Shown: piece by piece, positions 33,018 to 50,215 of the stretch
Numbering within the stretch: the stretch's first letter is position 1
Layout of the letters: the number at the start of each line of letters is the position of its first letter
Source: Streptomyces marispadix
Lineage (GTDB): Bacteria > Actinomycetota > Actinomycetes > Streptomycetales > Streptomycetaceae
Length of the DNA: 64,000 nucleotides
Assembly: GCF_022524345.1 (NCBI RefSeq)
Contig: NZ_JAKWJU010000002.1
Span: forward strand, 2,790,001 to 2,854,000
Direction of reading: 5' to 3'
Translations under genes and position numbers: made by a program
The notes under the pieces: model-generated
What the model saw: the letters and a program-made list of their open reading frames with translations, nothing else
Told to the model about the DNA's origin: nothing
Database searches by the model: none

Positions 33018-33339
33018 CATTGGGCGAACGCGCCGAGGCGACCCCGGGGTTGGGCCCTGCCATAGGGAACTGCTTGCTGATGGCAGTCCTCGTGTGCCGC
33101 CGTTGCTGTCAACGTTGCCGTCACCCACGTCACGAGCATGAGGCGGCGTGCTCCGGATCTGGCGGGCTCGCCTGCCGGCCTGCTTCTCGATGGCTTTCCG
33201 TGCGGCGTTGAAAACCAGGCCCCACGGGAAACCGCGCGTATCGCCCTGCTTCGGCGGGTGCGGCTCGCCCGGTCCGAACAGGACGTCGACGCCCCGGTCA
33301 GCTTCCAACAGCGAGGTAGTGGCGTGGTCTTACCGCCGC

Positions 33340-33883
33340 TCGTCGTCCCTGCACGGGACTTCTGGTCCGGCGTCCTGGTCCAACTGACCGTGCAGGACGA
33401 CGGCACCGGTATCGGCCACATCTGCGGCGGCGCCTCCTACATGCCGATGAAATCCCACCGCCCGCCGACTCCCGCACCGGTCGAGGAACACTCGGCACGC
33501 CCGTACGAAAGCGCCCTCGACCCGCGGGAGTCGCTGCCGCTCGGCTTCGCCCTCTACGGCGGGACGCGCCTGCCCGGAATGAAACTCGTCCACGCCCTCC
33601 AAGGGGAGAGACGAGACACCACCGCGTGTGGCTCCGCGACCTGCACGGTTCCGGCGCCGCCGCCGACGTAGGCGAACCCGTCGCACAGTACGGGCCACGC
33701 GACCTGTGGGCCGAAGTCGAGGCAGCGTACGCGGAGTATGCCGACCTCGGCAGACCAGAGCCCGAGACGTTCGGCATAACCGTCTCCCCGCATGGCGAAC
33801 AGATGTGGATCGGCGACCCGAGTCGCGTGATCGGCCCGTCCTCGTCGGCCGCCGCTCCACGCCCGGCGCCGTTGACGTCCTGA
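33340..33883 (+). pseudogene. C-terminal remnant of a protein-L-isoaspartate methyltransferase-like RiPP enzyme
   Basis: The first part gives LVQLTVQDDGTGIGHICGGASYMPMKSH and GFALYGGTRLPGMKL. After a frameshift near 33620 the next frame gives VWLRDLHGSG, QYGPRDLWAEVEAAYAEY and FGITVSPHGEQMWIGDP. These match the C-terminal domain of protein-L-isoaspartate O-methyltransferases found with ATP-grasp and FxLD peptide systems. The catalytic N-terminal half is absent. The last 160 nt recur at 36857. Confidence 0.65.
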
Positions 33884-34113: not shown

Positions 34114-34254
34114 GTGAACACCAGTGAGTTCCTTACGAGTGAGGGGGTCGCCGAGTATGAGGCGCCCGTGATCACCGACATCGGCGAGTTCGCCGAACAG
34201 ACCAGGGGTGAATTCGGTGACTGGCCCGACTACCCGGTCGGTCTTTGGCTCTGA
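34114..34254 (+). CDS. lasso peptide precursor
   Basis: 46 aa from GTG 34114 (GAGAGGAG upstream) to TGA 34252. The leader is residues 1-31, with the recognition motif Y15-E-A-P18 and the penultimate Thr30 that lasso proteases need. The predicted core is GEFGDWPDYPVGLWL: Gly1 can close onto Asp8 to give an 8-residue ring and a 7-residue tail YPVGLWL, with Trp14 or Tyr9 as likely steric locks. There is no Cys, so class II. The architecture resembles sungsanpin and chaxapeptin (15 residues, Gly1-Asp8, GL near the end), but I do not recognise this sequence. The three genes after it supply all needed enzymes. Confidence 0.92.
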   Translation: MNTSEFLTSEGVAEYEAPVITDIGEFAEQTRGEFGDWPDYPVGLWL

Positions 34255-34273
34255 ACGAGGTTGATCGACGATC

Positions 34274-36094
34274 GTGAGTAGCAGCAGCGGTTGGCCCGTG
34301 TCGTGGTTCGTCGTGCTGGCGGACCGTGACGAGCAGCGGGATGTGGTGGAGCGGGTGCCGGCATCCGCGCGGCGGGTTGCCTCGTACGCCTCTGGCCGTC
34401 CGTGGCTGGTGGGGCAGGTGCCGCAGTGGCAATGCACGATCGTGGAGGTCGGATTGAACCGACTGGTGGTGCTCGGGGTCTGCCCGAGCACCACCGACGA
34501 CCTGTCGCAGCGCCTGTCCCGCGTTGGCGGTGTGGAGGACCTCGACGGTCTGGCTGCGGCGTTGCCGGGCAGTTGCCACCTGGCGCTGGCGGTCGAGGAC
34601 CGGACCCGGGTGCAGGGCACGGCCTCCGGGCTTCGGCGTGTGTTCCAGGCCCGGCACGGTCGCGGCACCATCGCGGCAGACCGGGCCGATGTGCTGGCGG
34701 CGCTGACCGGCGCTCCGTTGGATGAGGACTGGCTCGCGCTGGGGATGCTCCGGTACCTGCCGCATCCACTGGGGGACCGGACACCGTGGCGTGGCATCGA
34801 CGGCGTGCCCGCAGGCTCCGCCCTGCAATGGGAGGCCGATGGGTCGGCGCGGGTGCGCCGTTGGTGGACACCACCGGAACCGGCGGCGTCGGTAGCCGAA
34901 GGTGCGCCGGTGCTGCGCGAGGAGCTTTCCCGCGCGGTGGCACTACGCGTGGAGCAAACGTCATCAGACGCTCCGCTGGGGTGCGATCTGTCCGGCGGGA
35001 TGGACTCGACCTCGTTGTGTCTGCTTGCCCACCACCACGGCGCCGACATGGTCGCCCTCACCACCCACCACACCGACGCCTCCAGTGCCGACTCCCGCTG
35101 GGCCGACCTCGCCGCGACCGTGATGCCCGGACTGGACCGGATGCACCTGGGCCCGGACGACCTCCCCCGCTACTTCGCCGGCATCGACGAGGTCCACCCG
35201 CCGACCGACGCGCCCTCGCCGTTGCCGCGCGGTCGGGCGGTGTTCAGCCGCAGCGCGCGGCTGTACTCCCGTCGCGGGGTGCAGGTTCACTTGGCGGGGC
35301 ACGGTGGTGACGAGGTCGTCGCCGCCCCGGACGCCTACGTACACGACCTGTTCCGCCGCGATCCCCGGACAGCGCTGAAGCACCTGCGCGGCCACCGCGC
35401 TCGGCGCCGCTGGACGAAAGCGCACATCGTCCGAGGACTCGCGGACCGCAGTGGCTATTCCGGATGGCTGGCCACCGAGGCCGACCGTCTCACCGACCCC
35501 GAGCACACCAGCGCGTTGTTCGGCTGGGGTGCGCCGCTGCGGCTGCCGCCGTGGGCCAGCCGCCGTGCGGTGCGCGTCGTGTCCGAGGCGTTGGCCGAGG
35601 CCGCCGCCGGTGCGCACTCCCTCGCACCGTCCCGCGGCCAGCACACCGCGCTGCAACGCATCCAAGAAGCGGGGAACTACTACCGGTTGTTCTGCCAGGA
35701 AACCGACGCCCCCTGCATCGAACTGCCCTATCTGGACGACCGCGTCATCGAGGCGTGCCTGTCGGTGCGACTGGCCGAGCGAGGCGATCCCTGGCAGTTC
35801 AAACCGCTCCTCACCCGCGCGATGCACGGCATCGCACCCGCTGAGTTCCTGACCCGCACCACCAAGGACACCCCCGCCCTGGACTGCTACCAGGGGCTAC
35901 GCGCCCATCGAGCCCAAGTACTCGATGTAGTGGCCGCCTCGCCGCTGGTCCACCACGGCCTGGTCGACCCAGCCGCGCTCCGCGCCGCCGTGCTCTCCCC
36001 GCAACCCCGGCAGTGGGCCGCGCTGGAGCACTCCCTGTCCTGCGCCACTTGGCAACCCCGCACCCCGATCATCACTTCAGGAGCAACGGCATGA
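34274..36094 (+). CDS. lasso peptide cyclase (asparagine synthetase-like, C protein)
   Basis: A 606-aa ATP-dependent macrolactam synthetase that adenylates the ring Asp of the precursor and closes it onto Gly1. The N-terminal glutaminase-like domain lacks the catalytic Cys2, as in all lasso cyclases. The synthetase domain has the PPi loop DLSGGMDSTS (about 236-245), HLAGHGGDEV, and the C-terminal ELPYLDDRVIEACLSV. It starts at GTG 34274, 20 nt after the precursor stop, and overlaps the next gene by ATGA. Confidence 0.92.
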   Translation: MSSSSGWPVSWFVVLADRDEQRDVVERVPASARRVASYASGRPWLVGQVPQWQCTIVEVGLNRLVVLGVCPSTTDDLSQRLSRVGGVEDLDGLAAALPGSCHLALAVEDRTRVQGTASGLRRVFQARHGRGTIAADRADVLAALTGAPLDEDWLALGMLRYLPHPLGDRTPWRGIDGVPAGSALQWEADGSARVRRWWTPPEPAASVAEGAPVLREELSRAVALRVEQTSSDAPLGCDLSGGMDSTSLCLLAHHHGADMVALTTHHTDASSADSRWADLAATVMPGLDRMHLGPDDLPRYFAGIDEVHPPTDAPSPLPRGRAVFSRSARLYSRRGVQVHLAGHGGDEVVAAPDAYVHDLFRRDPRTALKHLRGHRARRRWTKAHIVRGLADRSGYSGWLATEADRLTDPEHTSALFGWGAPLRLPPWASRRAVRVVSEALAEAAAGAHSLAPSRGQHTALQRIQEAGNYYRLFCQETDAPCIELPYLDDRVIEACLSVRLAERGDPWQFKPLLTRAMHGIAPAEFLTRTTKDTPALDCYQGLRAHRAQVLDVVAASPLVHHGLVDPAALRAAVLSPQPRQWAALEHSLSCATWQPRTPIITSGATA

Positions 36095-36342
36095 CACTGC
36101 GACTCCATCCGAAAGTCGCCGCCACCACGACCGACAGCGGCATGGTGCTACTGGACCAGAACGCGGGGCGCTACTTCGAACTCAACGCGACCGGCGCGAC
36201 CGTCGTCCGAGCCCTCACCGATGGTGCGGACCCAGTGCAGCAACTGATGCAGCGAGCCTCCGTCCCCAAGGACCAAGCGGCCCAAGACGTCGCCGAGTTC
36301 CTGGAGACGCTGCGCTCCCGCGGTCTGGCGGTGGACCAGTGA
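36091..36342 (+). CDS. lasso peptide RRE protein (PqqD-like, B1)
   Basis: An 83-aa PqqD-family protein that binds the leader peptide and delivers it to the protease. The winged-helix pattern is LRLHPKVAATTTDSGMVLLDQNAGRYFELN, where the GRYFELN strand is typical, then a helix pair ending RSRGLAVDQ. It overlaps the cyclase stop by ATGA and the protease start by GTGA, so all three enzymes should be made in fixed ratio. Confidence 0.92.
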   Translation: MTLRLHPKVAATTTDSGMVLLDQNAGRYFELNATGATVVRALTDGADPVQQLMQRASVPKDQAAQDVAEFLETLRSRGLAVDQ

Positions 36343-36752
36343 GCATGCCCGCCTCGGTCAACGCGTTGCCACCGTTGGCCTGGTGGCGGCGACCGCCAGT
36401 GTTGCTGGCGGTGGCCGGCGCGTGGTGGCTGGCGCGACAATCACCGGCCCGCATCCAGGCAGTGCTCAAGGTCCTCCGGCGAGGCGCCCGGCCCGCCACC
36501 TACGCCCAGGCTCAGCAAGCGCGCAACGACGTCCTGGCGACCAGCGTGCAATGCAACGGCGAAGGCTGCCTCCAGCGCTCCTTGGCCACCACGCTGCTCT
36601 GCCGGCTGCGAGGGACCTGGCCAACCTGGTGCACTGGCGTACGCACCATGCCCTTCACCGCGCACGCCTGGGTCCAAGTAGACGACCGCATCGTCGACGA
36701 GCCATACCCCGACGACTACTACCGACCCATGCTCGTCGTGACGCCACGGTAG
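36339..36752 (+). CDS. lasso peptide leader protease (B2)
   Basis: A 137-aa transglutaminase-like cysteine protease. Catalytic residues: C77 in GEGCLQRSL, H109 in PFTAHAWVQVD and D120 in RIVDEPY. An N-terminal hydrophobic stretch (PVLLAVAGAWWLA) is common in this group. It cuts after the leader, between Arg31 and Gly32 of the precursor. It starts at GTG 36339. No exporter gene follows, unlike many lasso clusters, so export and self-protection must come from elsewhere or are lost. Confidence 0.92.
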   Translation: MSMPASVNALPPLAWWRRPPVLLAVAGAWWLARQSPARIQAVLKVLRRGARPATYAQAQQARNDVLATSVQCNGEGCLQRSLATTLLCRLRGTWPTWCTGVRTMPFTAHAWVQVDDRIVDEPYPDDYYRPMLVVTPR

Positions 36753-36856: not shown

Positions 36857-37016
36857 ACGCGGAGTACGTCGACCTCGGCAGACCAGAGCCCGAGGCATTC
36901 GGCATGACCGCCACCCCGCACGGCGAAGAGATGTGGATCGGCGACCCCACCCGCGTGATCGATCCGTCTTCTTCAGATCCGGCGCCGCACCCTGCCCGTT
37001 GAGGTTCTGACCGGCT
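36857..37016. repeat. right 160-bp direct repeat, second methyltransferase C-terminal fragment
   Basis: Translates in the frame ending at 37002 as YVDLGRPEPEAFG and EEMWIGDPTRVID, the same C-terminus as at 33729-33889. No coding sequence for the rest of the enzyme is present. Recombination between the two copies would delete the lasso genes as a 3.1-kb circle. Confidence 0.85.
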
Positions 37017-37115: not shown

Positions 37116-37565
37116 ATGTATCCCTGCCGCGTCGCCCTGCCTTCGGAATGCGTGACTGCTATGCGGGCGCGACGCAGCCAGCAGCTTGCCGACCAGCGCG
37201 CGGCTGGCGCGGGCTGGAAGGGGGCGGCTCACGGGTTGATCTTCACGACGAAGAACGGCACTCCCATCGAGCCCCGCAACCTCAACCGCTCGTTCGAAGC
37301 CTTGTGCAGGCGGGCGGAGATCCGAAGGGTCCGCTTCCACGATCTGCGGCACACGTGCGCGTCACTGCTCCACGAGCAGGGTGCGGACGCTCGCATGATC
37401 ATGGAAGTTCTCGGGCACAGCTCGATTCGCGTCACGATGGACATCTACACGTTCGTGCGCCTCGACGCCCAGCGCTCAGCCTTCGACCGCGTCGGCGATG
37501 CGCTGAACGACGGCCCGGACGAGGGCCAGGACGACGATCCCGGCGCGGCCCCAAAAGAGGACTGA
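37116..37565 (+). pseudogene. truncated tyrosine integrase (C-terminal catalytic part)
   Basis: About 150 residues from VALPSECVTAMRARRSQQ onward: GLIFTTKNGTPIEPRNLNRSF, the HxxR box VRFHDLRHTCASLLHEQGAD, the following His in MEVLGHSSI, and the nucleophile Tyr in MDIYTFV. The N-terminal arm-binding and core-binding domains and the first catalytic Arg are missing. It lies 87 nt before the middle att copy, the normal place for the integrase of the left element. Confidence 0.85.
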
Positions 37566-37651: not shown

Positions 37652-37694
37652 GAGCCGCCTGTCGGATTCGAACCGACGACCTTCTGTTTACAAG
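37652..37694. repeat. middle att copy (left end of the complete element)
   Basis: 43 nt identical to 50218-50260 in the tRNA-Thr gene, running from its 3' end to the anticodon loop. With the copy at 50218 it bounds the complete conjugative element. Confidence 0.95.
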
Positions 37695-37776
37695 CTGTGG
37701 ACAGCTCGGACATCTGCGGTCGCAGCGGTCAGGCAAGCGACGTCAGCAGGGGCCTGCGGCCACCAACGGTCAGCGA

Positions 37777-37800
37777 GGTTGCTGTACTTCGCTGCTGTAC
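37777..37800. repeat. 24-bp terminal direct repeat, left copy (possible integrase arm site)
   Basis: The 24 nt here recur exactly at 50147-50170 in the same orientation, near the other end of the element. Each contains two copies of G(T/C)TGCTGTAC 13 bp apart. Here the next bases AGCAACC add an inverted half-site. Position and structure suit arm-type binding sites for the integrase or excisionase. Confidence 0.65.
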
Positions 37801-37838
37801 AGCAACCTCAAGCGAGCCACAGAATGGGGGACGGCGGG

Positions 37839-39357
37839 TCAGTCGATATCGTCGCCCGCTGTGGAGTCATCTTCCCCGGGATCCTCCTCGCTGCCACCGC
37901 GTTCATGAAGCTCATCAGACAGTTCAGGGTTTCGGGCTCGCGACGCCGATTCTTTTCGTCGCGCATCGATGAGGATCGATGTAATGTTTGCTCCACTGGC
38001 CTTCGAAGCTACAGCCGCCGCCTTCTTCACTTTCTCACGAAACTCTGGGACGAGCTCGTCATCCGTGTACGCGATTGCCACATAGATGCCCCGCTTTACT
38101 TCTTCTGCAACTTGATATCTGGGTAGCTGAGCTAAGACCCCATCCCAAAACCTGCTGCTTCGCGCAAGCTTGATCTCAACGAGTGCACGAGCTGACCAAC
38201 CACGCGAGAACTTGAAGTCTACCGGGCCCCCTGCCGGCGTCTGCTTCTCCACTTAGGTCGATGTCATTTGCTCGACAGTAGTGAATCACAGAGCTTCGAA
38301 AAAGGGCTTGCGATATTCGCTCTTCGCGCCCTCTCTTTTCCCCCCAGAGAATCTGCCATCCATCTTGATCCTCTATGCTATGCCTGAAGCAATCGACTAC
38401 CACTTCGACAAACTTGCCGAAATCAGCTTCGCGTTCAGGGACGAAGCTGAGGGGTGAATTTTCAGCTAGCTCTGCTCCGGCTTCGTACCAATGCACGAGC
38501 ATGTCGGGATCGTCGTGAATCGGATATGGATTCTTAGGTTCTTCTTCCAGGGCCTTCAGGTAGAGTGCGGCCACATCGGGGTTCTCCCGAGCCAGCTTTG
38601 CCTTCTCCCGGCGCTCGACATTTCTGGCGATATCAAATGCCAAATCGCCTCTCAGCTCTTCCGACATGTTCGACCAAGCCCAGGACCAGAACCCATCCGG
38701 TGTTGCGACTGGGATCCTTCGCAGGAAGCTGGCTGGTGTCAGAATGAGTGGTCTATTTATAGCCGGATTGACAGGCAGTTCACATTTTTTTGAAACCCAG
38801 CGACAATAGTCCTTGTTCCATTCTGCATTGGTCACATCGAATTCCCGCATAGGGACGTGATGACGACGGCAGACTTCCTGCGTGTACGCAATGAAGTAGC
38901 TTTTTAGAATATTGCAAGTCATGTCACTGAGGCGGTCAACTCCCATACCACCTTGGAAGAGGTTGAGCATTTCCATATGCGCAACCCGGCTCATCCCCAA
39001 GCCTGTGGCAACCTTTACTCCTTCGAGCATATCTCGTTGGAGGCAGGCACCTGACCCGATGCCCATCGGGGAACTTTCCGCAACGCCAAGGCAGAATTCG
39101 AACGGTTCAGGGAATAGGAGGAGCTTCTTCGATTGCCGCCATGACACGGAGGATGTATTGCCACCTGACTTCTTGACCAGATCAAATACCATCTCGAAGA
39201 AATCGATCAAGTGATCGTGAGCTGATGCCCACTGCCCTTCTGTTCGCTCCCAGATCAGAAAAGGGTCGACGAATAACTTCGTGTCAGCTGGCATGAAGGT
39301 GTCGAACCAGTCGTCCTCGGGCGTGGTAGGGATGTTGTAGTACTCGCTGAAACGCAT
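37839..39357 (-). pseudogene. predicted PD-(D/E)XK nuclease-type protein, interrupted by a frameshift
   Basis: From ATG 39357 (GAGGGGG upstream) the first 390 residues start RFSEYYNIPTTPEDDWFD and LFVDPFLIWE. They reach SGEADAGRG and then leave frame at a run of five G/C near 38226-38230. The other frame continues GPVDFKFSRGWSARALVEIKLARSS to 37839. Removing one base joins them as ADAGRGPVDFKFS, with D...ExK as the nuclease core. From memory, intact relatives of about 530 aa have exactly this join. Third positions are often A/T, unlike its neighbours, so it came from a lower-GC host. It is perhaps a defence or restriction-type cargo gene. A short overlapping second gene from GTG 38252 is an alternative reading. 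Confidence 0.7.
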
Positions 39358-39574
39358 GTCGCCCCCTCGTTGTCGTCTCAACGATTGTGGCAGTGCAACC
39401 GGACGGCGAACAGGGTGCTTCAGGATGCTTTCGAACGGGCGCATCCTCAAGCATCACGGCCCCCAACCAGCCGAGTGGTCAGGGGCCGTTACGCCGAAGG
39501 ACGATTGCACCGCGATGCCCGTGCCTGTCGTTACCGATGGGGTGTGGCACATGAATGGCATGGGACGGCAGTGA

Positions 39575-39778
39575 CTACAGAGGCCGTTGACGCCCCTTGC
39601 GCTTTAGCGCTGAACCGTAGTAGGCGATGAAACACGCGAGGAAGGCAGCAGCGTCTGCATAGGCGCTGATGACTTCTGCGCCAACACGCCAGAATGTCAC
39701 AACTACGACGATTACTGTTACAACCCATAGTTGAACACGAGGGTTTGACAGTCCTGGCAGCAACGGGTGCACACTCAT
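39575..39778 (-). CDS. small membrane protein
   Basis: A 67-aa protein with two membrane helices (LWVVTVIVVVVTFWRVGAEV and AAAFLACFIAYYGSAL) and a basic KRKGRQRPL tail. ATG 39778 has GGAGG 7 nt upstream. Function unknown; small proteins of this kind are common in conjugative elements. Confidence 0.6.
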   Translation of the reverse strand: MSVHPLLPGLSNPRVQLWVVTVIVVVVTFWRVGAEVISAYADAAAFLACFIAYYGSALKRKGRQRPL

Positions 39779-40122
39779 CTGTGAGCCTCCAAGGCTTGTG
39801 CCCCGTCCCAGTCGCTCGTGCCGGCAAGCGTGCGCGACTGGGGCGGGGTTCTCTCTGTGATGTCCAAGCGACCGTAGCAACGTCTCAGCCATAGATCCTC
39901 ACACGCAGCATCACCGACGATCACTCTCGGATGTAAAGTGGCTTGACAGTTCAACTCTCCGTAGTCATGAACGTGTTCTGGGGGACACGTTTCACGGAAA
40001 GAATCAACTGCACGTTGATTTTCCAAGAGCGAGATGACCCTATGTGGCCACGCAAGTTGGCTGAATACACTCGGTCGGAACCTACAAAGCGCGGTCGGTG
40101 GAACGGCTTTGGGCTGGAGCTG

Positions 40123-40232
40123 CCTTGGGGCGAGAGATCAGGGGCTCGTAAGCTTCCCGCGACTCGGGCAGTCTCCTGACCTGCCCGCAACAGCCCGAAG
40201 TGAGCCCCTGATCTTCGAGGCTCGCCCCAAGG
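40123..40232. repeat. large two-step inverted repeat, candidate clt or replication origin
   Basis: Outer arms CCTTGGGGCGAG (40123-40134) and CTCGCCCCAAGG (40221-40232) and inner arms GATCAGGGGCTC (40136-40147) and GAGCCCCTGATC (40202-40213) are both perfect 12-bp pairs. They give a 110-nt cruciform or hairpin with a 54-nt loop. It encodes nothing convincing. Confidence 0.75.
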
Positions 40233-40346
40233 TGGCTGCCTAAAGCAGTGGAGCCGACCGACCCCCGGCAGCGCCCTTCTTCTCTTCTGGGTCGCGTCCG
40301 CGCGCGGAACGGCGGCCGGGCCGGAGCGGGGCGAAGACAGGAGCGT

Positions 40347-40367
40347 GGCCCGGCGGCAAGCCGGGCC
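40347..40367 (-). terminator. hairpin terminator of the ATPase gene
   Basis: GGCCCGGC and GCCGGGCC (8-bp arms, 5-nt loop) lie 44 nt past the stop of the leftward ATP-binding protein gene. Confidence 0.6.
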
Positions 40368-40410
40368 GCGCAGCGAGCGGAGCGAGCCCTTGAAGTAGTA
40401 GAGAAAGTTG

Positions 40411-41199
40411 TTACTCACCGCGGAGGCTGGTGAGTTGGGCTGTCGAGTGCATCTGCGTGCATGCAGGCAAGATCCTGCCTTGGCGGTGTGCCATCGGTAG
40501 GAAGGTGACCGGTCGGGCGGTCCAAGTGATGTGCGTGGTGCGGTGTTTGAGGGTGAGGTGCTGGGGCTCGCCCTTGCGGAGCGCTTCGAGGGCCTGCGGC
40601 TGCTCGTGGTTCTTCCAGTGCTGGGCCTGGCGGTAGGGCTCCTCGTCCAGGGCCATGGCGATCGTCATGAGGCTGATGCGGACCCAACGGATTGCCTGTT
40701 CGGGGCTGGTGGCGTCGAAGGAGCCGAGCTTGCCACCGTTGACGAGGCATTCGCACCAGTAGCCGTGTGTCAGCGGGGTGTTGGGCGTCTCCGGGGCGGT
40801 GGAGAGTTCGGCTGTGACGGTGTGGCCGTGCTTGTCGTCGCCGTTGATGTGGAGGCGCTGAGCGAGGGTGGAGACCAGGGCCAGGCCGCGGCCGTGGGTG
40901 TCGTTCTCGTCGGGGTGAGCCACGTGTGGCGTGGTGCGGGTGCCGCCGGCGTCGGTGACGGAGATCAGCACGGTCTCTGGTGCGCGGGAGATCGTGAGGT
41001 TGAAGGCTTCGCCCTGGTTGCCGCTGGCGCTGTGGAGTAAAGCGTTCGTGCCCAGCTCGGTGACGATCAGCGCCGCGTCGTCGGCGTGGTCGCTGTCGCT
41101 GAGGATGTCGCGCGTCCATCGGCGGGCGCGGCCGACCTCTTCCAAATAGCCAGGGCAGGTGAGTTCCCAGATCCGCAGAGTGCTCGTATACTCGTGCAT
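40411..41199 (-). CDS. HATPase-fold ATP-binding regulatory protein
   Basis: A 262-aa protein. The first 140 residues are a RsbW/SpoIIAB-like kinase domain: ALIVTELGTNALLHS (N box), SVTDAGGTRTTPH and HGRGLALVSTLAQRL (G boxes). The last 120 residues are a separate helical domain (IRWVRISLMTIAMALDEEPYRQ). Such proteins act as anti-sigma-like switches and recur in conjugative elements. The ATG at 41199 overlaps a candidate GntR half-site, so the element repressor may control it. Confidence 0.8.
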   Translation of the reverse strand: MHEYTSTLRIWELTCPGYLEEVGRARRWTRDILSDSDHADDAALIVTELGTNALLHSASGNQGEAFNLTISRAPETVLISVTDAGGTRTTPHVAHPDENDTHGRGLALVSTLAQRLHINGDDKHGHTVTAELSTAPETPNTPLTHGYWCECLVNGGKLGSFDATSPEQAIRWVRISLMTIAMALDEEPYRQAQHWKNHEQPQALEALRKGEPQHLTLKHRTTHITWTARPVTFLPMAHRQGRILPACTQMHSTAQLTSLRGE

Positions 41200-41200
41200 A
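41183..41200. promoter_or_regulatory. GntR-type half-sites at the ATPase start
   Basis: CTCGTATA CTCGTGCATA is a direct repeat of the CTCGTAT half-site seen as a full palindrome at 42620-42635. It covers the ATPase start codon, so binding would block the promoter or translation start. Confidence 0.5.
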
Positions 41201-41244
41201 CAAGTTCCTTCATGCTGGTGGCCGCTATGGACAGTGGATTAGAG

Positions 41245-41679
41245 CTAGACGAGTTTGACGCCGTCGTGCGCACGCACAGCCGGCGGGGATGTCGCGTCGA
41301 GTGCGTCCAGGACTCGAATTGCGTATGCCTCGTCGGCCAGTTCGGAGACTTCTTCGCGGGTCGCCCAACGAAGCGCGTAGGTCTCGTCCCCGGTCGTCGG
41401 GGCGCCGCTGACCGCTTCGCAGCGGAAGACGAGCGAGACGATCAGGCCGGACATGTTCTTGTAGACGCCGGTGAGGGTCGCGGGAAGCGCGATCTTGATG
41501 CCGGTCTCTTCGAGGACTTCGCGCTGAAGCGCATCAGGGATGGTCTCCCCCGGCTCCAGCACGCCGCCAGGCGGTTCCCATCGGCCGTTGTCCCTGCGCT
41601 GGATCAGGAGAGCCCGGGCGCGGTCGTCGACGATGACCCCGGCGACGCTTACCGAGTGGGGGCGCTCTACTGGACTCAC
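41245..41679 (-). CDS. Nudix hydrolase, Pif-like
   Basis: A 144-aa Nudix protein. The Nudix box is complete: GGVLEPGETIPDALQREVLEETGI (residues about 38-61, GX5EX7REUXEEXGU). It would hydrolyse a nucleoside-diphosphate derivative. In pSAM2 the transfer-immunity protein Pif carries a Nudix motif and sits in the same region, so this is a plausible Pif counterpart. It diverges from the GntR gene. Confidence 0.85.
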   Translation of the reverse strand: MSPVERPHSVSVAGVIVDDRARALLIQRRDNGRWEPPGGVLEPGETIPDALQREVLEETGIKIALPATLTGVYKNMSGLIVSLVFRCEAVSGAPTTGDETYALRWATREEVSELADEAYAIRVLDALDATSPPAVRAHDGVKLV

Positions 41680-41737
41680 GGCTTTCCGGCTTCCTTCGTC
41701 TGGCTAGGCTCTCCACCGTAACAACGACACTCGACCT

Positions 41738-41750
41738 CTCGTCTAGATAT
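41738..41750. promoter_or_regulatory. GntR autoregulatory site
   Basis: CTCGTCTAGATAT lies 15-27 nt before the GntR start codon and shares CTCGTnTAGA with the sites at 42620 and 42696. Probably autorepression, and perhaps control of the divergent Nudix gene. Confidence 0.55.
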
Positions 41751-41764
41751 CTGAAGGAGTACAC

Positions 41765-42553
41765 ATGGCGGCTCTTCCCTCCGGCATCCTGGGAACGCTG
41801 GACCCGACGAGTGATCGCGCAGTTTTCCGGCAAATCGCCGATCAACTGCGCGAAGCCATCGACAAGGGCCGCTTCAAGGAGGGAGCAAAACTCCCCTCCG
41901 AGGCCGAGTTGACTGAACACTTCGGGGTCTCCCGAATGACCGTGCGCAACTCCCTCTCCGTATTGCAGAGCGAAGGACTGGTCTCCTCCGAGCACGGCCG
42001 CGGCGTCTTCGTCCGCCCGCGTCCGCCTGTGCGGCGGCTGGCGTCCGACCGCTTCGCCCGGCGTCACCGCGATCAGGGCAAGTCCGCGTTCGTGGTGGAG
42101 GCGGAAGCCGCGGGGAGCCGTCCCGAGGTGGACAGCCTGGAAGTGCGGGAAGAGCGCTCGACTCCGGATATCTCCGCGCGGCTCGGCTCGGCTCGGAAGG
42201 TGCTCGCTCGCCGGCGCCGCTACCTGCTGGACGGGAAGCCGGTCGAGACGGCCGTCTCGTACCTGCCGCTCGACATCGCCCGCAATACGCCCATCGCCGA
42301 ACCGAACCCCGGGCCCGGTGGCATCTACGCCCGGCTTGAGGAACTGGGCCACCAGCTCGACCACTTCGAGGAAGAGGTACGGGCTCGGATGCCGGCACCG
42401 GATGAGGTGAAGACGCTCCGGCTGGCCTCCGGTGTACCGGTGATCCACCTGGTGCGGACCGCCTACGACACAGATGGCCGTGCGGTGGAGGTCTGCGACA
42501 CCGTGATGTCCGCTGACGCCTACGTCCTCGCCTACCAACTTCCTGCTAGCTGA
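41765..42553 (+). CDS. GntR/HutC-family repressor, KorSA-like
   Basis: A 262-aa regulator. The N-terminal wHTH starts at IADQLREAIDKGRFKEGAKLPSEAEL and continues HFGVSRMTVRNSLSVLQSEGLV (residues about 20-72). The C-terminal UTRA ligand-binding domain includes RRRYLLDGKPVETAVSYLP and HFEEEVRARMP. GAAGGAG precedes ATG 41765. In pSAM2 the matching protein KorSA represses the element's replication and transfer activator. Related sites flank this gene on both sides. Confidence 0.9.
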   Translation: MAALPSGILGTLDPTSDRAVFRQIADQLREAIDKGRFKEGAKLPSEAELTEHFGVSRMTVRNSLSVLQSEGLVSSEHGRGVFVRPRPPVRRLASDRFARRHRDQGKSAFVVEAEAAGSRPEVDSLEVREERSTPDISARLGSARKVLARRRRYLLDGKPVETAVSYLPLDIARNTPIAEPNPGPGGIYARLEELGHQLDHFEEEVRARMPAPDEVKTLRLASGVPVIHLVRTAYDTDGRAVEVCDTVMSADAYVLAYQLPAS

Positions 42554-42619
42554 TGGACGTTGAGGGTCGGTGTGGTGCAAGGGGCTTCTTCCCCGGAACT
42601 TGTACGCACCCAGAAGCAT

Positions 42620-42635
42620 ACTCGTATAGACGAGT
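42620..42635. promoter_or_regulatory. GntR operator palindrome
   Basis: ACTCGT-ATAG-ACGAGT, perfect 6-bp arms, 118 nt before the SCO3933-type gene that opens the transfer operon. It is the clearest copy of the motif shared by four intergenic sites of the element. Confidence 0.75.
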
Positions 42636-42695
42636 GGGCAAGTGTTGTGGCACAGTGGTCCGCGTTCCAATCGAACCGGTGCTGTCACGACGCAT

Positions 42696-42712
42696 CTTGT
42701 CTAGACGACTAG
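42696..42712. promoter_or_regulatory. second GntR-type site before the transfer operon
   Basis: CTTGTCTAGACGACTAG contains the palindrome GTCTAGAC and, with one change, TCGTCTAGACGA. It lies 41 nt before the first gene of the transfer operon, where a repressor would block the promoter. Confidence 0.6.
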
Positions 42713-42752
42713 GCGTGACTGGCTCCGGGTGACTGAAGGAGAAGAGAGAACC

Positions 42753-43103
42753 TTGAAGACCATCCGAGTTGAGACCGAGAACGCCACGATCCTGCTGACC
42801 GAGCTGCCTGAGCCCAAGGTGCGGGACCGGCAGACCGGTGAGATCGCCAAGGACGCCGTCAGCGGTGAGGCGTTGATGAAGGTCGGCGTCGTCTACATCG
42901 ACGAGGGGGAGTCCTCGCTCCTCCACGTGACCGTTCCCGAGAGCGGGGTCTCCGAAGGGCTGACGCTCGGGGCCCCGGTCTCGCTGCCGGGCCTGTTCGC
43001 CCGGCCGTGGGAGTCGGTGTTCAACGGGCAGCAGCGTCACGGGATCGCCTTCCGCGCGGCGGCAGTTGCTCCGGGTGCCGTCCCGGCCGGTGTGGGGGCC
43101 TGA
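42753..43103 (+). CDS. SCO3933-family regulatory protein
   Basis: A 116-aa soluble protein. It reads MKTIRVETENATILLTELPEPKV, DRQTGEIAKDAVSGEALMKVGVVYIDEGES and VTVPESGVSEGL, and is found next to the transfer gene in many Streptomyces elements (SCO3933 type). The exact function is unknown. The TTG start at 42753 is chosen because AAGGAGAAGAGAG lies just upstream and homology starts there. It begins the transfer-replication-integration operon. Confidence 0.82.
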   Translation: MKTIRVETENATILLTELPEPKVRDRQTGEIAKDAVSGEALMKVGVVYIDEGESSLLHVTVPESGVSEGLTLGAPVSLPGLFARPWESVFNGQQRHGIAFRAAAVAPGAVPAGVGA

Positions 43104-43107
43104 CCTG

Positions 43108-44484
43108 ATGTCGGAACTGATGACGCTGATGGAAGTGGGTGGTCCTCTCGCCGCCGCTGGTGGTGGGGCCGCCTACCTCCGGGCCCGGCATCCGGCCGCG
43201 TACTGGTCCACGGTGGGCCTGCCGGTTTCGGTGGCACGGCTGTTGGGCTCGTACGGGTCGGTCATGGACTCGTGCGGGCTGACGGTTCCGCCGTCACGGC
43301 TGCGGGTGTTCGCCACGCGTGCGACGACTCGTCGCGAGGTGCGGCCGGTGCCTCCTCGCCGTGGACTGCTGCGGCCGACGTCGACCGGGATGCGGCTGCG
43401 TCTGCGGTTGGCTCCGGGTCAGGAGCCGGCGGACGTGGCGGCTTCGGCTGAACGTCTGCGGCATTCCTGGGGTGTTCACGCCGTCTGCGTGGACGAGGTC
43501 AAGCCCGGCGTGGTCGAGCTGCGGCTTGTCGGCTTCGACGTGCTGGACCGGGTGCGGATGCCGCGCAAAGCCGGTGGCGGCTTCCTGCGGGTGCCGTTGG
43601 CGCTGCGGGAGGACGCGACCGCGTTCGTACGGGACTACCGCGCGATACCCCACCAGCTCACGCTCGGCGCGACGCTGTCGGGGAAGTCGATGTACTTGCG
43701 GAACCTCGTTACGGGGCTGGCGGGTCAGCGGGTGGCGCTCGCCGGGATCGACTGCAAGCGAGGTGTGGAGCTGGCGCCGTTCGCTTCGCGGTTGTCGGCT
43801 CTGGCGACGGAGCCGGGGGAGGCGGCTGAGTTGTTGCCGATGCTGGTGCGGCTGATGGAGGAGCGCTACGACCTCATCAAGGCCCGGCAGGGCATTGCCC
43901 CGAACACGCCGGATGAGGAGATCACCTCGGACGTGTGGGGGTTGCCCGAGCATCAACGGCCGGTGCCGGTGGTGCTGTTCGTCGACGAGGTCGCCGAACT
44001 CTTCCTCGTCGCGACGCGGAAGGACGAGGAGAGGCGGGACGAGATGGTCACCCAGCTCATCCGCCTCGCCCAGCTGGGCCGAGCCGCCGGCATCTACCTG
44101 GAGGTGTGCGGACAGCGCTTCGGCGCCGAACTGGGCAAGGGCGCCACCATGCTCCGCGCTCAGCTCTCCGGCCGCGTCTGCCACCGCGTGAATGACGAGC
44201 CCTCGGCCAAGATGGCGCTCGGCGACATCGCCCCGGAAGCGGTCGAGGCCGCCTGTGCCATCGCTCCGGAACGGCCCGGCCTGGCCGTTGCCGGTGACAC
44301 CTCCGGTGGCTGGTCCCGCATCCGTACGCCGTACCTGTCGCTGGCCGACGCTGCGGCCGTCTGCCAGGAAGCCGCGCACATGGTGCCGGACGTGCCCGCG
44401 CTGGACCCATTCCGGCCTGCTCCTCTGGTCCCGCCCGTTGACCGGCCGGTCTCGCTGGTGAAGCCCCGCCCGGTCCTGGACTGA
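43108..44484 (+). CDS. FtsK/SpoIIIE-type conjugal transfer protein (TraSA/TraB-like)
   Basis: A 458-aa DNA translocase. It starts with a short hydrophobic/Ala-Gly segment, then has the ATPase core: Walker A LGATLSGKSMYL (about residues 189-200), Walker B VPVVLFVDEVAELF, and RLAQLGRAAGIYLEVCGQRF. This family alone moves double-stranded DNA between mycelia in Streptomyces conjugation. ATG 43108 comes 5 nt after the previous stop. Confidence 0.92.
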   Translation: MSELMTLMEVGGPLAAAGGGAAYLRARHPAAYWSTVGLPVSVARLLGSYGSVMDSCGLTVPPSRLRVFATRATTRREVRPVPPRRGLLRPTSTGMRLRLRLAPGQEPADVAASAERLRHSWGVHAVCVDEVKPGVVELRLVGFDVLDRVRMPRKAGGGFLRVPLALREDATAFVRDYRAIPHQLTLGATLSGKSMYLRNLVTGLAGQRVALAGIDCKRGVELAPFASRLSALATEPGEAAELLPMLVRLMEERYDLIKARQGIAPNTPDEEITSDVWGLPEHQRPVPVVLFVDEVAELFLVATRKDEERRDEMVTQLIRLAQLGRAAGIYLEVCGQRFGAELGKGATMLRAQLSGRVCHRVNDEPSAKMALGDIAPEAVEAACAIAPERPGLAVAGDTSGGWSRIRTPYLSLADAAAVCQEAAHMVPDVPALDPFRPAPLVPPVDRPVSLVKPRPVLD

Positions 44485-44566
44485 CCCACATCCCAATCCG
44501 GTTGGCGTGACCGCCTCGCGCCACGTCCCTACCCCTCCCTTGCCTGAAACAGAAAGGAGGTGCCTC

Positions 44567-45202
44567 GTGCGCGCTCAACTGGCCCGCGTTGATGCGGTGC
44601 TCGTCCAGGCGGTCATCGCCGCTGCGCTGTCTTTCGCGCATCTGCACGACCTGGCCTCGGCTGCCGGACAGGACGGCTGGAAGGCGTGGGCCTATCCGGT
44701 CTCCGTCGACCTGCTGTTGGTCGCTGCCTGGAGGCGGCTGAGGTCCGGACGGGACAAGGCCGCGGGCTGGTGCTGGTTCCTCGTCGCCCTGGCCGCGTCG
44801 CTCGGCGCGAACATCTCCACCGCCGGCCTCCTCGACCTGGACGACGTGCCCGCCTGGCTCCGCATTCTCGTCGCCGGATGGCCCGCACTGGCCTTCCTCG
44901 GCGGAACCCTCCTCGCACACGGATCGAACGGGCCTGCTGCGGCAGAGAGTTCGCAGCCCGTCGTGACCGCAGAGCAAGAGTCTGCGGCTCCGATCGAGCC
45001 CGTGACTGATGAGCCTGTGCCTTCGCTCGCGAAGCCCGAGAGCGCTGAGTCGCCAGTCCCCGCTGCGCTCGTCGCGCACGCACGCAAGGTCGCCGACGCC
45101 CATCAGGCCCGTACCGGCGCCCCGATCGACACCGCCACACTCCGCGCCCGCCTCGGCGTCCCCACGCCGCTGGCCGAACAGATCGCAGCCCAACTCACCT
45201 GA
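44567..45202 (+). CDS. DUF2637 membrane protein (spread-type)
   Basis: A 211-aa protein with four hydrophobic segments typical of DUF2637 (VDAVLVQAVIAAALSFAHL, WAYPVSVDLLLVAAW, CWFLVALAASLGANIS, ILVAGWPALAFLGGTLLA). The C-terminal third is soluble and resembles a small HTH (LRARLGVPTPLAEQIAAQL). GTG 44567 follows a perfect AGAAAGGAGGTG. It sits after the transfer ATPase and probably helps plasmid spread along the mycelium. Confidence 0.85.
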   Translation: MRAQLARVDAVLVQAVIAAALSFAHLHDLASAAGQDGWKAWAYPVSVDLLLVAAWRRLRSGRDKAAGWCWFLVALAASLGANISTAGLLDLDDVPAWLRILVAGWPALAFLGGTLLAHGSNGPAAAESSQPVVTAEQESAAPIEPVTDEPVPSLAKPESAESPVPAALVAHARKVADAHQARTGAPIDTATLRARLGVPTPLAEQIAAQLT

Positions 45203-45221
45203 CCAGACAGGAGAACTCGCC

Positions 45222-45413
45222 ATGCCCTTAAACCGCCGCTTCCGCCGCGTGACCCGCGTCGGCCCCGTCCAGGTCGGCACCGCCTACGACAACCGCGGCC
45301 GCGAGAAGCACACCGCCGCCTGCACCGCCCCGCGCTGCGGCTTCTCCGCCGACTACGACTCCCGCGCCGCCGCCGAACTCGCCGCCCGCACACACCGCTG
45401 CCCCGTCCGCTGA
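45222..45413 (+). CDS. mobile element transfer protein, small
   Basis: A 63-aa basic protein (RRFRRVTRVGPVQVGTAYDN, CTAPRCGFSADYDSRAAAELAARTH) with a C-x4-C pair and His-Cys at the end, likely a zinc knuckle. Found at this place in many pSAM2-like elements. ATG 45222 has AGGAG upstream. Confidence 0.85.
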   Translation: MPLNRRFRRVTRVGPVQVGTAYDNRGREKHTAACTAPRCGFSADYDSRAAAELAARTHRCPVR

Positions 45414-45427
45414 AAGGAGCCCGCCCC

Positions 45428-45622
45428 GTGACCGTCAGCCTGCCCCTGGTCGTCGTCCTCGGCCTCATCGCCTGGGGAGCCGTGAAGTTCCTCGGCGTCC
45501 GTATGTGGCTCGTCGTCGTGATCGCCCTCTTCGGCTTCTACCTCGCCGACACCTTCCTCGCCCCCGCCATCGACTCCGGCGCCCGCAACGGCGTCCAGGT
45601 CATCAACGGCACCAACGACTGA
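45428..45622 (+). CDS. small membrane protein (SpdA-like)
   Basis: A 64-aa protein with two membrane helices (LPLVVVLGLIAWGAVKFL, MWLVVVIALFGFYLADTFL). GTG 45428 follows GAAAGGAG. Belongs to the spread gene cluster. Confidence 0.8.
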   Translation: MTVSLPLVVVLGLIAWGAVKFLGVRMWLVVVIALFGFYLADTFLAPAIDSGARNGVQVINGTND

Positions 45623-45636
45623 GAGGAGAACCCGCC

Positions 45637-45918
45637 ATGCTCTTCCGCCCTCAACTCCCCGAGGCTCCGCAGCTTCCGGCCTCGCCTGGGACGCCCGTGG
45701 GGCGGGCCTCGGTCGTCACGCAGCATCACGCACCGCCGCCGGCCGCGCCCGCTCCGCGTCGGTCCCTGCCGAACGTCAGCACCGGCGCCATCGGCCTCGT
45801 GCTCCTGGGCGGCGTCGTCCTCACCGCGCTCCTGACAGCCGTCGCCGTCTCCGCCATCTCCGTGGCCGTCGCTGCCGTCGTCCTGCGCTCGCTCCTGAAC
45901 TCACAGCACCGCCGCTGA
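45637..45918 (+). CDS. membrane protein (SpdB-like)
   Basis: A 93-aa protein with a Pro/Ala-rich N-terminal half (LPASPGTPVG, APPPAAPAPRRS) and one long hydrophobic region (TGAIGLVLLGGVVLTALLTA and on to VLRSLL). ATG 45637 with GAGAGGAG. Spread gene cluster; no enzymatic motif. Confidence 0.8.
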   Translation: MLFRPQLPEAPQLPASPGTPVGRASVVTQHHAPPPAAPAPRRSLPNVSTGAIGLVLLGGVVLTALLTAVAVSAISVAVAAVVLRSLLNSQHRR

Positions 45919-46005
45919 GCGGCTACCGGGGCGGTCTCGATACCGCCAAGCATCCACCGCCCCGGCAGCCCAACCCCTCCCAGCCGAAGCCGAAAGGAGA
46001 AGACC

Positions 46006-47409
46006 ATCATCACCCGCCACAGCCCGACGCCACTCAAGGAACTCGGGACACTCGCCTCAAACGGGGACCTTTCCGGTATCCTCCGCCAGCTCTCCACGCT
46101 CGGCGGCTGCACCAACCCCGTACGGCTCGCCGGACAGCGGACCGAACACCGCGTCGACACCGCCACGGGTGAGATCGGCGCCCAGCTGCACCGCCTCAAC
46201 TCCCAGGACATGCCCGCCGGTCACCTCCTGGTGCGGTGCGGCAACCGCCGTACGACCCGCTGTGCGGCCTGTGCCGAGACCTACCGCCGCGACACCTTCC
46301 ACCTGATCACCGCCGGACTCCGCGGCGGCAAGGGCACACCCGAGACGGTCACTTCGCATCCGCGAGTCTTCGCCACGTTCACCGCGCCGAGCTTTGGCCC
46401 TGTCCACAACCGGCCCACCGGCCCCGGTGGTTCGGTACGGCCCTGCCGGTGTGGCAAGCGCCACCACCAGGACGATGCCGCCCTCGGAACGCCACTCGAC
46501 CCCGACTCCTACGACTACGGAGCGGCAGTGCTGTGGAACGCGCACGCCGGGATGCTCTGGCGGCGCTTCACCATTTACCTACGCCGTGAGATCGCCAAGC
46601 GGGCCGGGCTCTCTCAGCGCGCCTTCCGGCACTTCGCCCGTGTCTCCTTCGCCAAGGTCGCCGAATACCAGAAGCGCGGCGCCGTCCACTTCCACGCCGT
46701 CATCCGCCTCGACGGCCCGACCGGCGGGGACAGTTCGCCTCCGGCGTGGGCAACCGCCGAGCTGCTGGCCGACGCCATCAAGGCGGCTGCGGGGAAAGCC
46801 AGAGTGGCCGGCCCCGTCGTCGACGAGCGCGCGCACTCCTTCACCTTCGGCCGCCAGCTCGACGTACGCACCATCCACGGACCCGACTTCGACGGCGGCC
46901 AGGAACTCACTGACCGCGCGGTGGCCGCGTACATCGCCAAGTACGCGACCAAGGGAGCCGAGACAGCCACGGGAACGCTAGACCGTCGTCTGAGGTTCGT
47001 CGCGGAGCTGGCCCAGCTCGACATCAGCCCGCACGCCGAGCGGATGATCCGCACCGCCTGGGCTCTCGGTGCCCGTAAGGACCTGGCTCACCTGCGGCTA
47101 CGGGCCTGGGCTCACATGCTCGGCTTCCGCGGCCACTTCTCGACCAAGACCCGCCGCTACTCCACCACCCTCGGCGCACTCCGCAACGCTCGCGCCGAAT
47201 GGCGCCGACTCCAAGCCGCCATCGCACGCGGCGAGAACCGTCCACAGCCTGCGGACAACAACGGCTCCGGCGAAGAGACGACGCTCGTCCTCGCCCACTG
47301 GTCCTTCGTCGGCACTGGCCTCGACCCGGTCGAGCAATGGCTGTCTGCCTCGCTCGCCGAACCCAGCACACCGGCCACCACCAGCGCGGAGGGAGAGGAC
47401 GGTCTATGA
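46006..47409 (+). CDS. repSA: RepSA-like replication initiator with an apparent ATC start
   Basis: About 467 aa if translation starts at ATC 46006. Features: zinc-type Cys pairs CGNRRTTRCAACAETYRRDTF and CRCGKRHH, then the rolling-circle block AEYQKRGAVHFHAVIRLDG with the HUH His pair, and AVAAYIAKYATKGAE with the nucleophile Tyr. The frame is open from 45919, and the coding-like sequence continues upstream of the only ATG (46210). AAAGGAG lies exactly 6 nt before ATC 46006, where ATG is expected. If ATG 46210 were used, 68 residues would be lost. It overlaps the excisionase by ATGA. Confidence 0.85.
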   Translation: MITRHSPTPLKELGTLASNGDLSGILRQLSTLGGCTNPVRLAGQRTEHRVDTATGEIGAQLHRLNSQDMPAGHLLVRCGNRRTTRCAACAETYRRDTFHLITAGLRGGKGTPETVTSHPRVFATFTAPSFGPVHNRPTGPGGSVRPCRCGKRHHQDDAALGTPLDPDSYDYGAAVLWNAHAGMLWRRFTIYLRREIAKRAGLSQRAFRHFARVSFAKVAEYQKRGAVHFHAVIRLDGPTGGDSSPPAWATAELLADAIKAAAGKARVAGPVVDERAHSFTFGRQLDVRTIHGPDFDGGQELTDRAVAAYIAKYATKGAETATGTLDRRLRFVAELAQLDISPHAERMIRTAWALGARKDLAHLRLRAWAHMLGFRGHFSTKTRRYSTTLGALRNARAEWRRLQAAIARGENRPQPADNNGSGEETTLVLAHWSFVGTGLDPVEQWLSASLAEPSTPATTSAEGEDGL

Positions 47410-47618
47410 GTACTTCCCGCGTCGACCGCAAGTGGCACACCACAGCCGAGGTCGCCGACATGCTGGGCTTCGGCCTATCCAAGACGAAGATGCTCGTGCT
47501 GACCGGCGAGATCCGCTCCGTCAAGGTCGGCCGCAACCGCCGCATCCTTCCGGCCTGGGTCGACGAATATGTCGAACGCTGCGCCGCTGAAGCCGAGGAC
47601 ATGAGGTGGTCGGCATGA
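47406..47618 (+). CDS. xis: excisionase, MerR-like helix-turn-helix
   Basis: A 70-aa DNA-binding protein: WHTTAEVADMLGFGLSKTKMLVLTGEIRSVKVGRNRRIL is the excisionase/AlpA wHTH (described by pattern, residues about 10-48). Its length and its place between repSA and int, overlapping both by ATGA, are as in pSAM2. It steers the integrase toward excision. Confidence 0.9.
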   Translation: MSTSRVDRKWHTTAEVADMLGFGLSKTKMLVLTGEIRSVKVGRNRRILPAWVDEYVERCAAEAEDMRWSA

Positions 47619-49015: not shown

Positions 49016-49028
49016 CAGAGCAGGCCGG

Positions 49029-49763: not shown

Positions 49764-49814
49764 CTCGTCTGATCACCTGAGCTCGCGCCCGGTCCGTGAG
49801 CGGAGACCTGGATC

Positions 49815-50012
49815 ATGTTCACTGCTTTGCTTGCTCTGCTGCGTGGTGACGCGGCGGCGTGGGTGGGGGGAGCAATCTTCCTGTTCGTTTTGACGCTTTT
49901 CGTGACGGTCGTAATCGCGCTGTGCCGGGCGGACAGGCAGGACATCGTTGACGTAGTAGAGGCGGGGGCCAACTGGCTCCCTTGGCGTCCGCGACGCCGC
50001 AACCGCCGGTAG
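49815..50012 (+). CDS. small membrane protein at the right end of the element
   Basis: A 65-aa protein with one strong membrane helix (WVGGAIFLFVLTLFVTVVIAL) and a basic PRRRNRR tail. ATG 49815 has GGAGACC upstream. Function unknown. Confidence 0.5.
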   Translation: MFTALLALLRGDAAAWVGGAIFLFVLTLFVTVVIALCRADRQDIVDVVEAGANWLPWRPRRRNRR

Positions 50013-50146
50013 CGCTGCCCCGTTCGTCTGCACCATATGCACCGCACAGCCGTCAGGCGACTCGACCCAAGAGCAGCGCTCCCCCGCACGCAACCTCGCC
50101 GGAGTGAAGGCCCACCGCTCGGAGCACAGTCATTAGCGATCACCCC

Positions 50147-50170: not shown

Positions 50171-50177
50171 GCACGAC

Positions 50178-50211: not shown

Positions 50212-50215
50212 GACC

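What the first reader, a model, noticed from the sequence alone, without database searches (positions are those of the whole stretch)
34114..36752. Compact lasso peptide cluster with a core sequence I do not recognise
The precursor has the leader motif YEAP, penultimate Thr, and core GEFGDWPDYPVGLWL with Gly1 and Asp8 placed for an 8-residue ring. Cyclase, RRE and protease follow with ATGA/GTGA overlaps and intact catalytic residues (C77/H109/D120 in the protease, SGGMDS in the cyclase). The core is acidic and aromatic, with tail YPVGLWL. It has the general plan of sungsanpin/chaxapeptin but a different sequence. No exporter or immunity gene is present.
Basis: partly seen in the sequence, partly recalled or inferred. 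Interest (0 to 1): 0.88.

Follow-up and report, generated by a model that had tools for sequence, protein, structure and literature searches.

The report
Lasso peptide cluster, recurring core
This Streptomyces DNA holds four genes predicted to make a small knotted (lasso) peptide; the genes are of a known kind, and the peptide belongs to a group, for which I found no publication, that can be identical even between enzymes that have changed a great deal.

Summary
Window 34114-36752 carries a four-gene lasso cluster in order A-C-B1-B2 (precursor, cyclase, RRE, leader protease) with the quoted motifs and residues. "Unrecognised" needs qualifying: the exact core also occurs in Nonomuraea basaltis and another Streptomyces, and I recovered 21 related precursors with 11 distinct cores, mostly GxxGDWPDxPVGxWL. 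The strings searched occur in no paper of the library. The lack of an exporter is shared with chaxapeptin, which is secreted without one. Two further features. (1) The core is 15/15 identical to one made with a cyclase only 40% identical; core-bearing cyclases are not one clade, and core codons are no more alike than independent draws. Purifying selection on the product is my preferred reading; old recombination or convergence are open, since closer cyclases (63-81%) carry cores of only 11-14/15. (2) The cluster lies between copies of the tRNA-Thr 3' half, beside a pSAM2-type integrative and conjugative element, with an integrase fragment and methyltransferase remnants around it. Verdict: new member of a known kind with notable core conservation. 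Product and activity are untested.

The parts
34114..34254 (+). lasso precursor A, 46 aa; leader part YEAPVITDIGEFAEQTR, core GEFGDWPDYPVGLWL
   Evidence: NF033521 27.2 bits
34207..34251 (+). 15-residue core; predicted Gly1-Asp8 ring, tail Y9-L15
34274..36094 (+). lasso cyclase C (asparagine-synthetase-like), 606 aa, SGGMDS from residue 240
   Evidence: PF00733 2.7e-34
36091..36342 (+). B1 / RRE (PqqD-like), 83 aa, ATGA overlap with C
   Evidence: NF033530 84.6 bits; TfuB1 6jx3 1.7e-12
36339..36752 (+). B2 leader peptidase (transglutaminase-like), C77/H109/D120, GTGA overlap with B1
   Evidence: NF033537 115.4 bits
32977..33006 (.). far copy of the tRNA-Thr 3' half (degenerate att-like site); 97% identical to the middle copy over 30 nt
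37652..37694 (.). middle copy of the tRNA-Thr 3' half, 43 nt identical to the intact tRNA region
50216..50292 (-). intact tRNA-Thr(TGT), presumed attB of the island
37116..37565 (+). integrase C-terminal fragment (profile positions 88-166 of 172 only)
   Evidence: PF00589 1.3e-18
33306..33867 (+). broken graspetide-type methyltransferase remnant, left of the lasso genes
   Evidence: TIGR04188 positions 194-252 and 296-362
36857..36995 (+). second copy of the methyltransferase 3' end, right of the lasso genes, 82% identical to the left copy
37695..50215 (.). neighbouring pSAM2-type element: GntR 41765-42553, FtsK/Tra 43066-44484, DUF2637 44507-45202, RepSA 46210-47409, HTH 47418-47618, integrase 47606-49015

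Best explanation
It is a class II lasso peptide cluster without its own exporter. Inferred pathway: B1 binds the YEAPVITDIG leader, B2 cuts after Thr-Arg, and the ATP-dependent cyclase activates Asp8 and joins it to the Gly1 amine around the threaded tail YPVGLWL, giving a 15-residue peptide of predicted [M+H]+ 1732.80. Export would use a general Streptomyces route, as proposed for chaxapeptin. The product belongs to a recurring core family that looks to be under purifying selection, so it most likely acts on a specific, conserved partner outside the cell. The cluster probably reached this Streptomyces by horizontal transfer from a Pseudonocardiales-like source into a tRNA-Thr integration hotspot. 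Shown: genes, motifs, core family, enzyme/core discordance, island anatomy. Inferred: cyclisation, threading, secretion, activity, selection as the cause, direction of transfer.
For: Lasso models pass cut-off for leader, RRE and protease. All four genes recur in Saccharopolyspora indica: A 70%, C 73%, B1 68%, B2 85%. Identical core in N. basaltis (P0004) and in G032, where C is 40%, B1 39% and B2 59% identical. In 21 precursor rows, Gly12, Trp14 and Leu15 are 21/21 and Pro10, Val11 20/21, positions the selecting pattern left free. Five core-bearing cyclases are not one clade in a 31-row tree: log-likelihood 332.85 lower when held together, p-AU 3.5e-54. Window versus G032: 0 of 15 core but 10 of 17 leader residues differ, and 10 of 15 core codons are identical, 8.74 expected from independent draws. 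Hotspot: backbone at about 13.5 kb lies 4.5 to 18.4 kb from tRNA-Thr in 6 of 9 relatives against 36.7 kb here.
Against: No product has been measured. The cyclase is below cut-off for both NCBIfam lasso-type cyclase models. D5 and D8 are both constant in the counted rows, and the counting pattern allowed only D/T and D/E there, so only the paralogue points to D8. Core constancy is not uniform: against the window, cyclases 81, 74, 73 and 63% identical go with cores of 13, 14, 13 and 11 of 15. G032's closest tree neighbours P0095 and P0109 have unknown cores. The codon test already sits at the independent level for window versus S. indica (8 of 13, 7.73 expected), so it cannot date events. Two of three other same-genus copies have broken cyclases. 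Leepeptin needed its own ABC transporters for secretion, and the same paper says most lasso clusters encode one. No transfer donor was identified. No sigma-70-type promoter match, though that scan covers one promoter type only.
Confidence: 0.88

Rival explanations
1. The cluster is a decaying passenger of the remnant element and makes nothing.
For: It sits among an integrase fragment, a broken methyltransferase and a degenerate att-like copy. Copies in G709 and G627 have broken or truncated cyclases. No promoter match.
Against: All four window genes are open, with catalytic residues and start-stop overlaps, and the core equals that of distant relatives.
Confidence: 0.2
2. The shared core in two distant cyclase lineages arose by old recombination of the core segment or by convergence, not by retention from a common ancestor.
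For: Core-bearing cyclases are not one clade. The only other cyclase at E <= 1e-140 to G032's in 120 genomes (54%, L035) carries an unrelated core. Leaders differ at 10 of 17 positions while the core differs at none. Closer cyclases (63-81%) have cores less alike, 11-14 of 15.
Against: Core codons are no more alike than independent draws, so recent exchange is unlikely. An intermediate core exists on the window's side (Amycolatopsis P0140, GWFGDWPDHDSGLWL).
Confidence: 0.4
3. The enzymes make a branched head-to-side-chain ring without threading.
For: Nothing here tests threading; sequence cannot show it. No call supports this directly.
Against: Leader, RRE and protease models are lasso types, and 15-residue cores with Gly1 and Asp8 are known lassos (sungsanpin and chaxapeptin, table of PMC12427821).
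Confidence: 0.04

Closest known systems
Chaxapeptin (GFGSKPLDSFGLNFF) and its cluster
   Same: 15 residues, Gly1 and Asp8 (table of PMC12427821); cluster without a transporter, on plasmid pSLE2, product detected after expression in S. coelicolor (passages of PMC6856326)
   Different: Core shares little beyond G1 and D8; here the setting is a chromosomal tRNA-Thr island
Sungsanpin (GFGSKPIDSFGLSWL)
   Same: 15 residues, Gly1, Asp8, Trp14-Leu15 end
   Different: Ring F-G-S-K-P-I versus E-F-G-D-W-P; this one is acidic
Second lasso locus of the same genome (L002, core GRIGTWPEGPVLFWA)
   Same: Template GxxGxWP[DE]xPVxxW
   Different: 7 of 15 core residues identical, Glu8, cyclase 42% identical
pSAM2-type actinomycete integrative and conjugative elements
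   Same: Neighbouring element has RepSA, FtsK-type Tra, DUF2637, HTH and integrase genes next to tRNA-Thr
   Different: The stretch holding the lasso genes keeps only an integrase fragment and att-like copies

Membership tests
Lasso peptide (class II) cluster | Precursor leader YxxPxLxxxGxxxxxTx with penultimate Thr | tested here: met
   YEAPVITDIGEFAEQTR: Y, P, G and Thr at -2 present, Ile in place of the Leu; NF033521 27.2 bits against cut-off 19; motif as quoted in PMC6856326
Lasso peptide (class II) cluster | Asn-synthetase-like macrolactam cyclase | tested here: inconclusive
   PF00733 2.7e-34; NF033561 250.5 bits against cut-off 300, NF033535 44.6 against 525. Some homologues at about 40-43% identity carry the name lasso peptide cyclase; the nearest named ones are called asparagine synthase-related
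Lasso peptide (class II) cluster | RRE (B1) and leader peptidase (B2) with Cys-His-Asp | tested here: met
   NF033530 84.6/70 and NF033537 115.4/33 bits; C77, H109, D120
Lasso peptide (class II) cluster | Asp or Glu at core position 7-9 | tested here: met
   Asp8; acid at 8 kept in paralogue L002 while position 5 is Thr; rule as quoted in PMC6856326
Lasso peptide (class II) cluster | Threaded macrolactam product | not testable with these tools
   needs expression, MS and NMR
Lasso peptide (class II) cluster | Dedicated exporter (usual, not required) | tested here: not met
   none among ORFs scanned; chaxapeptin precedent
GEFGDW core family (grouping made here) | GxxGDWPDxPVGxWL | tested here: met
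   18 of 21 counted rows fit it exactly
Cargo of an integrative element at tRNA-Thr | Flanking copies of the tRNA 3' end and an integrase | tested here: inconclusive
   two copies and an integrase fragment; no excision or empty site shown

The most novel reading that the evidence does not exclude
GxxGDWPDxPVGxWL is a target-constrained lasso pharmacophore kept nearly unchanged, and sometimes identical, in at least two enzyme lineages that have diverged to about 40% identity, with its clusters moving between actinomycete families in tRNA-targeted elements. The product, not the enzymes, would be the unit under selection, pointing to one conserved molecular target.
Probability: 0.35. Interest if true: 0.6.

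Novelty: new member of a known kind. Interest (0 to 1): 0.36.

Why it matters
A core that is identical across 40%-identical cyclases marks a product worth making early, because such conservation suggests a defined target. In the one control family examined here, six citrulassin-type loci with cyclases 68-95% identical differ at 1-4 of 15 core positions; that control has no pair near 40%, so it is only a rough yardstick. The 11 distinct natural cores, varying mainly at positions 2, 3, 9 and 13, are a ready-made structure-activity series, and the distant cyclases give matched pairs for testing how cyclases recognise a core.

Tried and rejected
Rejected: that the core is unique (identical in two other genomes). 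Rejected: a whole tRNA at the two flanking repeats; ARAGORN finds only the tRNA-Thr at 50216, so the repeats are 3'-half copies. Led nowhere: PDB search with precursor, cyclase and B2 (0 hits); Rfam over 32.5-38.5 kb (0 hits); promoter/terminator scan (0 hits); cyclase search in family f91, 0 of 250 genomes, a family I only guessed to be Pseudonocardiaceae and with 5 candidates scored per listed genome, so that empty result shows little; core pattern in genus g294, guessed to be Nonomuraea, 0 of 8; template pattern, 1 of 199 same-genus genomes, namely G032, the window's genome not being in that sample. A tRNA or integrase link for the other complete clusters is weak and not claimed: L030 has a tRNA-Arg near by, but the fragment I took for an integrase had no Pfam match and its neighbour only a sub-cut-off rve match; L005 has tRNA-Leu about 2 kb away without clear element ends. 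The first tree had a very long row, L009; I dropped it and 20 further rows of my choice before the tree (52 to 31 rows), and added P0008 to the labelled group after the first tree, when its precursor was found. Not read: Trends Genet. review PMC11537843 (not held); no supplementary files could be read.

Full report
What is there. The window lies in a 6.7-Mb genome, G000. Its genus is Streptomyces by inference: same-genus genome G709 has a contig of 131339 bases, the length given for the contig of a Streptomyces monashensis precursor (P0126). At 34114-36752 four co-directional genes encode a 46-aa precursor, a 606-aa cyclase, an 83-aa RRE and a 137-aa leader peptidase. Curated lasso models recognise leader, RRE and peptidase above cut-off; the cyclase hits PF00733 and, below cut-off, the albusnodin/ikarugamycin-type cyclase model. 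The stated catalytic residues and overlaps are correct. The RRE's solved relatives by sequence are TfuB1 (1.7e-12) and TbiB1 (1.2e-3).

How it would work. By analogy with characterised lasso pathways (general knowledge plus passages of PMC6856326), the RRE binds the leader, the peptidase cuts after Thr-Arg, and the cyclase activates an acid in the core and joins it to Gly1. Position 8 is the best candidate: the second lasso locus in this genome has the core GRIGTWPEGPVLFWA, with acid at 8 and Thr at 5. The predicted lasso has [M+H]+ 1732.80. None of these steps was measured. No transporter gene was found among the ORFs scanned. The chaxapeptin cluster likewise has none, lies on a plasmid, and its product was detected after expression in S. 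coelicolor; the authors suggest a nonspecific secretion system. Against this, the same paper says most lasso clusters encode transporters, that leepeptin needed its own, and that one chaxapeptin-like cluster has one (passages).

Is the core new? The strings GEFGDWPDYPVGLWL, GEFGDW, DYPVGLW, DFPVGLW, GDWPDY and GDWPDF occur in none of the 5.39 million papers held, and the core is not in the table of known cores of PMC12427821, which I read in full. Supplements and most subscription papers were not searchable. In sequence data it is not new: the precursor search gave 5 proteins, one of them the window's own and two (P0004, P0005) versions of one Nonomuraea basaltis precursor with an identical core. 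A profile search gave 61 proteins at E <= 1. From these I counted 19, from four named genera (Streptomyces, Saccharopolyspora, Nonomuraea, Amycolatopsis) and unnamed sources, plus G032 and G627, which may also be members of the 90% clusters that the database rows stand for: 21 rows with 11 distinct cores, 18 rows fitting GxxGDWPDxPVGxWL exactly. The selecting pattern fixed positions 1 and 4 and limited 5-8, so their constancy is partly by construction. Of the free positions, 12, 14 and 15 are 21/21 and 10 and 11 are 20/21, while 2, 3, 9 and 13 vary. Left out: P0005 (as above), P0132 (the paralogue) and the 40 rows P0142-P0181, which have other cores or none assigned. By exact pattern the core is rare: 1 of 396 phylum genomes, 4 of 392 same-genus genomes and, with a looser pattern, 1 of 394 class genomes. 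The samples overlap, and each hit list includes the window itself.

Core and enzymes disagree. The G032 cluster has all four genes, with C 40%, B1 39% and B2 59% identical to the window's, yet the core is 15/15. The only other cyclase at E <= 1e-140 to G032's in 120 genomes, 54% identical, has the core GWSGRDRELYSLFWNRWSSS; two closer ones in the tree, P0095 and P0109, have unknown cores. In a 31-row tree the five core-bearing cyclases need two changes of label, and holding them together costs 332.85 log units (p-AU 3.5e-54); a 52-row tree with four labelled rows also needed two changes. P0008 counts as core-bearing because its contig length, 3028, equals that of precursor P0136; P0007 and P0009 were matched to P0003 and P0002 the same way. 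Window and G032 share 10 of 15 core codons, against 8.74 expected if each drew codons independently from its own cluster's usage (P = 0.32). Recent exchange of core DNA is therefore unlikely; but window and S. indica, with 73% identical cyclases, are also at that level (8 of 13, 7.73 expected), so the test cannot tell old exchange from retention. As a rough control, six citrulassin-type loci (named by likeness to the citrulassin core) with cyclases 68-95% identical have cores of 11-14/15. Telling against a simple picture of constancy, the window's closer relatives with cyclases 81, 74, 73 and 63% identical have cores of 13, 14, 13 and 11 of 15. And of the three other same-genus copies, G709's cyclase lacks about residues 250-515 and G627's stops matching at 438 with no B1 or B2 match.

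Surroundings. The intact tRNA-Thr(TGT) is at 50216-50292. Two copies of its 3' half lie at 37652 and 32977: the first matches the tRNA region over 43 nt, while the longest exact stretch shared with the second is 19 nt, and the two copies are 97% identical over 30 nt. Between the tRNA and the first copy is a pSAM2-type element with RepSA (5.2e-142), FtsK/Tra, DUF2637, HTH, GntR and integrase genes. Between the two copies are the lasso genes, an integrase C-terminal fragment and methyltransferase remnants on both sides: TIGR04188 pieces to the left and an 82%-identical 139-nt repeat of the 3' end to the right. Fuller TIGR04188 genes exist elsewhere in the genome. The flank beyond the tRNA is conserved: 41 of 41 genomes, the window's own included, matched the 800-base query, many of them only over the ABC gene. 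Nine relatives were read further. Six show a match near window 13.3-13.5 kb on the island side of tRNA-Thr, at about 4.5 (L069), 7.2 (L064), 7.4 (L072), 11.8 (L065), 13.3 (L068) and 18.4 kb (L067, a 166-base match) against 36.7 kb here; three (L066, L070, L071) show none in the stretch read. No match of 80 bases or more to the lasso region was seen in the nine. The lasso genes are therefore in a variable hotspot. That they arrived as element cargo, probably from a Pseudonocardiales-like source because the closest named cyclase relatives are in Saccharopolyspora and Amycolatopsis, is inference.

Verdict. A real, intact, ordinary-in-kind lasso cluster whose core belongs to a conserved group that I did not find in print. 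Interest 0.36.

Noticed in passing
L002 (G000:C2:435247-440022): Second lasso locus in the same genome, core GRIGTWPEGPVLFWA, sharing the template GxxGxWP[DE]xPVxxW.
   Followed up: partly
L003 (G000:C2:6322856-6327640): Third lasso-type cyclase locus, candidate core GSAVGFTLDGGQYPYHVYFGGPPHT.
   Followed up: no
P0168, P0175, P0176: Precursors with cores such as GRNFGDWPDGLDKWIFAP: the motif FGDWPD again, but shifted so that the acid is at position 9, implying a 9-residue ring.
   Followed up: no
33306-33867 and 36857-36995: Remnants of a graspetide-type methyltransferase on both sides of the lasso genes, the 3' end duplicated at 82% identity; origin unexplained.
   Followed up: partly
37695-50215: pSAM2-type integrative and conjugative element at tRNA-Thr, which also holds a weak Cas3-HD-like ORF at 48882-49763.
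   Followed up: partly
L031 and L032: Same-core-family clusters in G709 and G627 with broken or truncated cyclases.
   Followed up: partly
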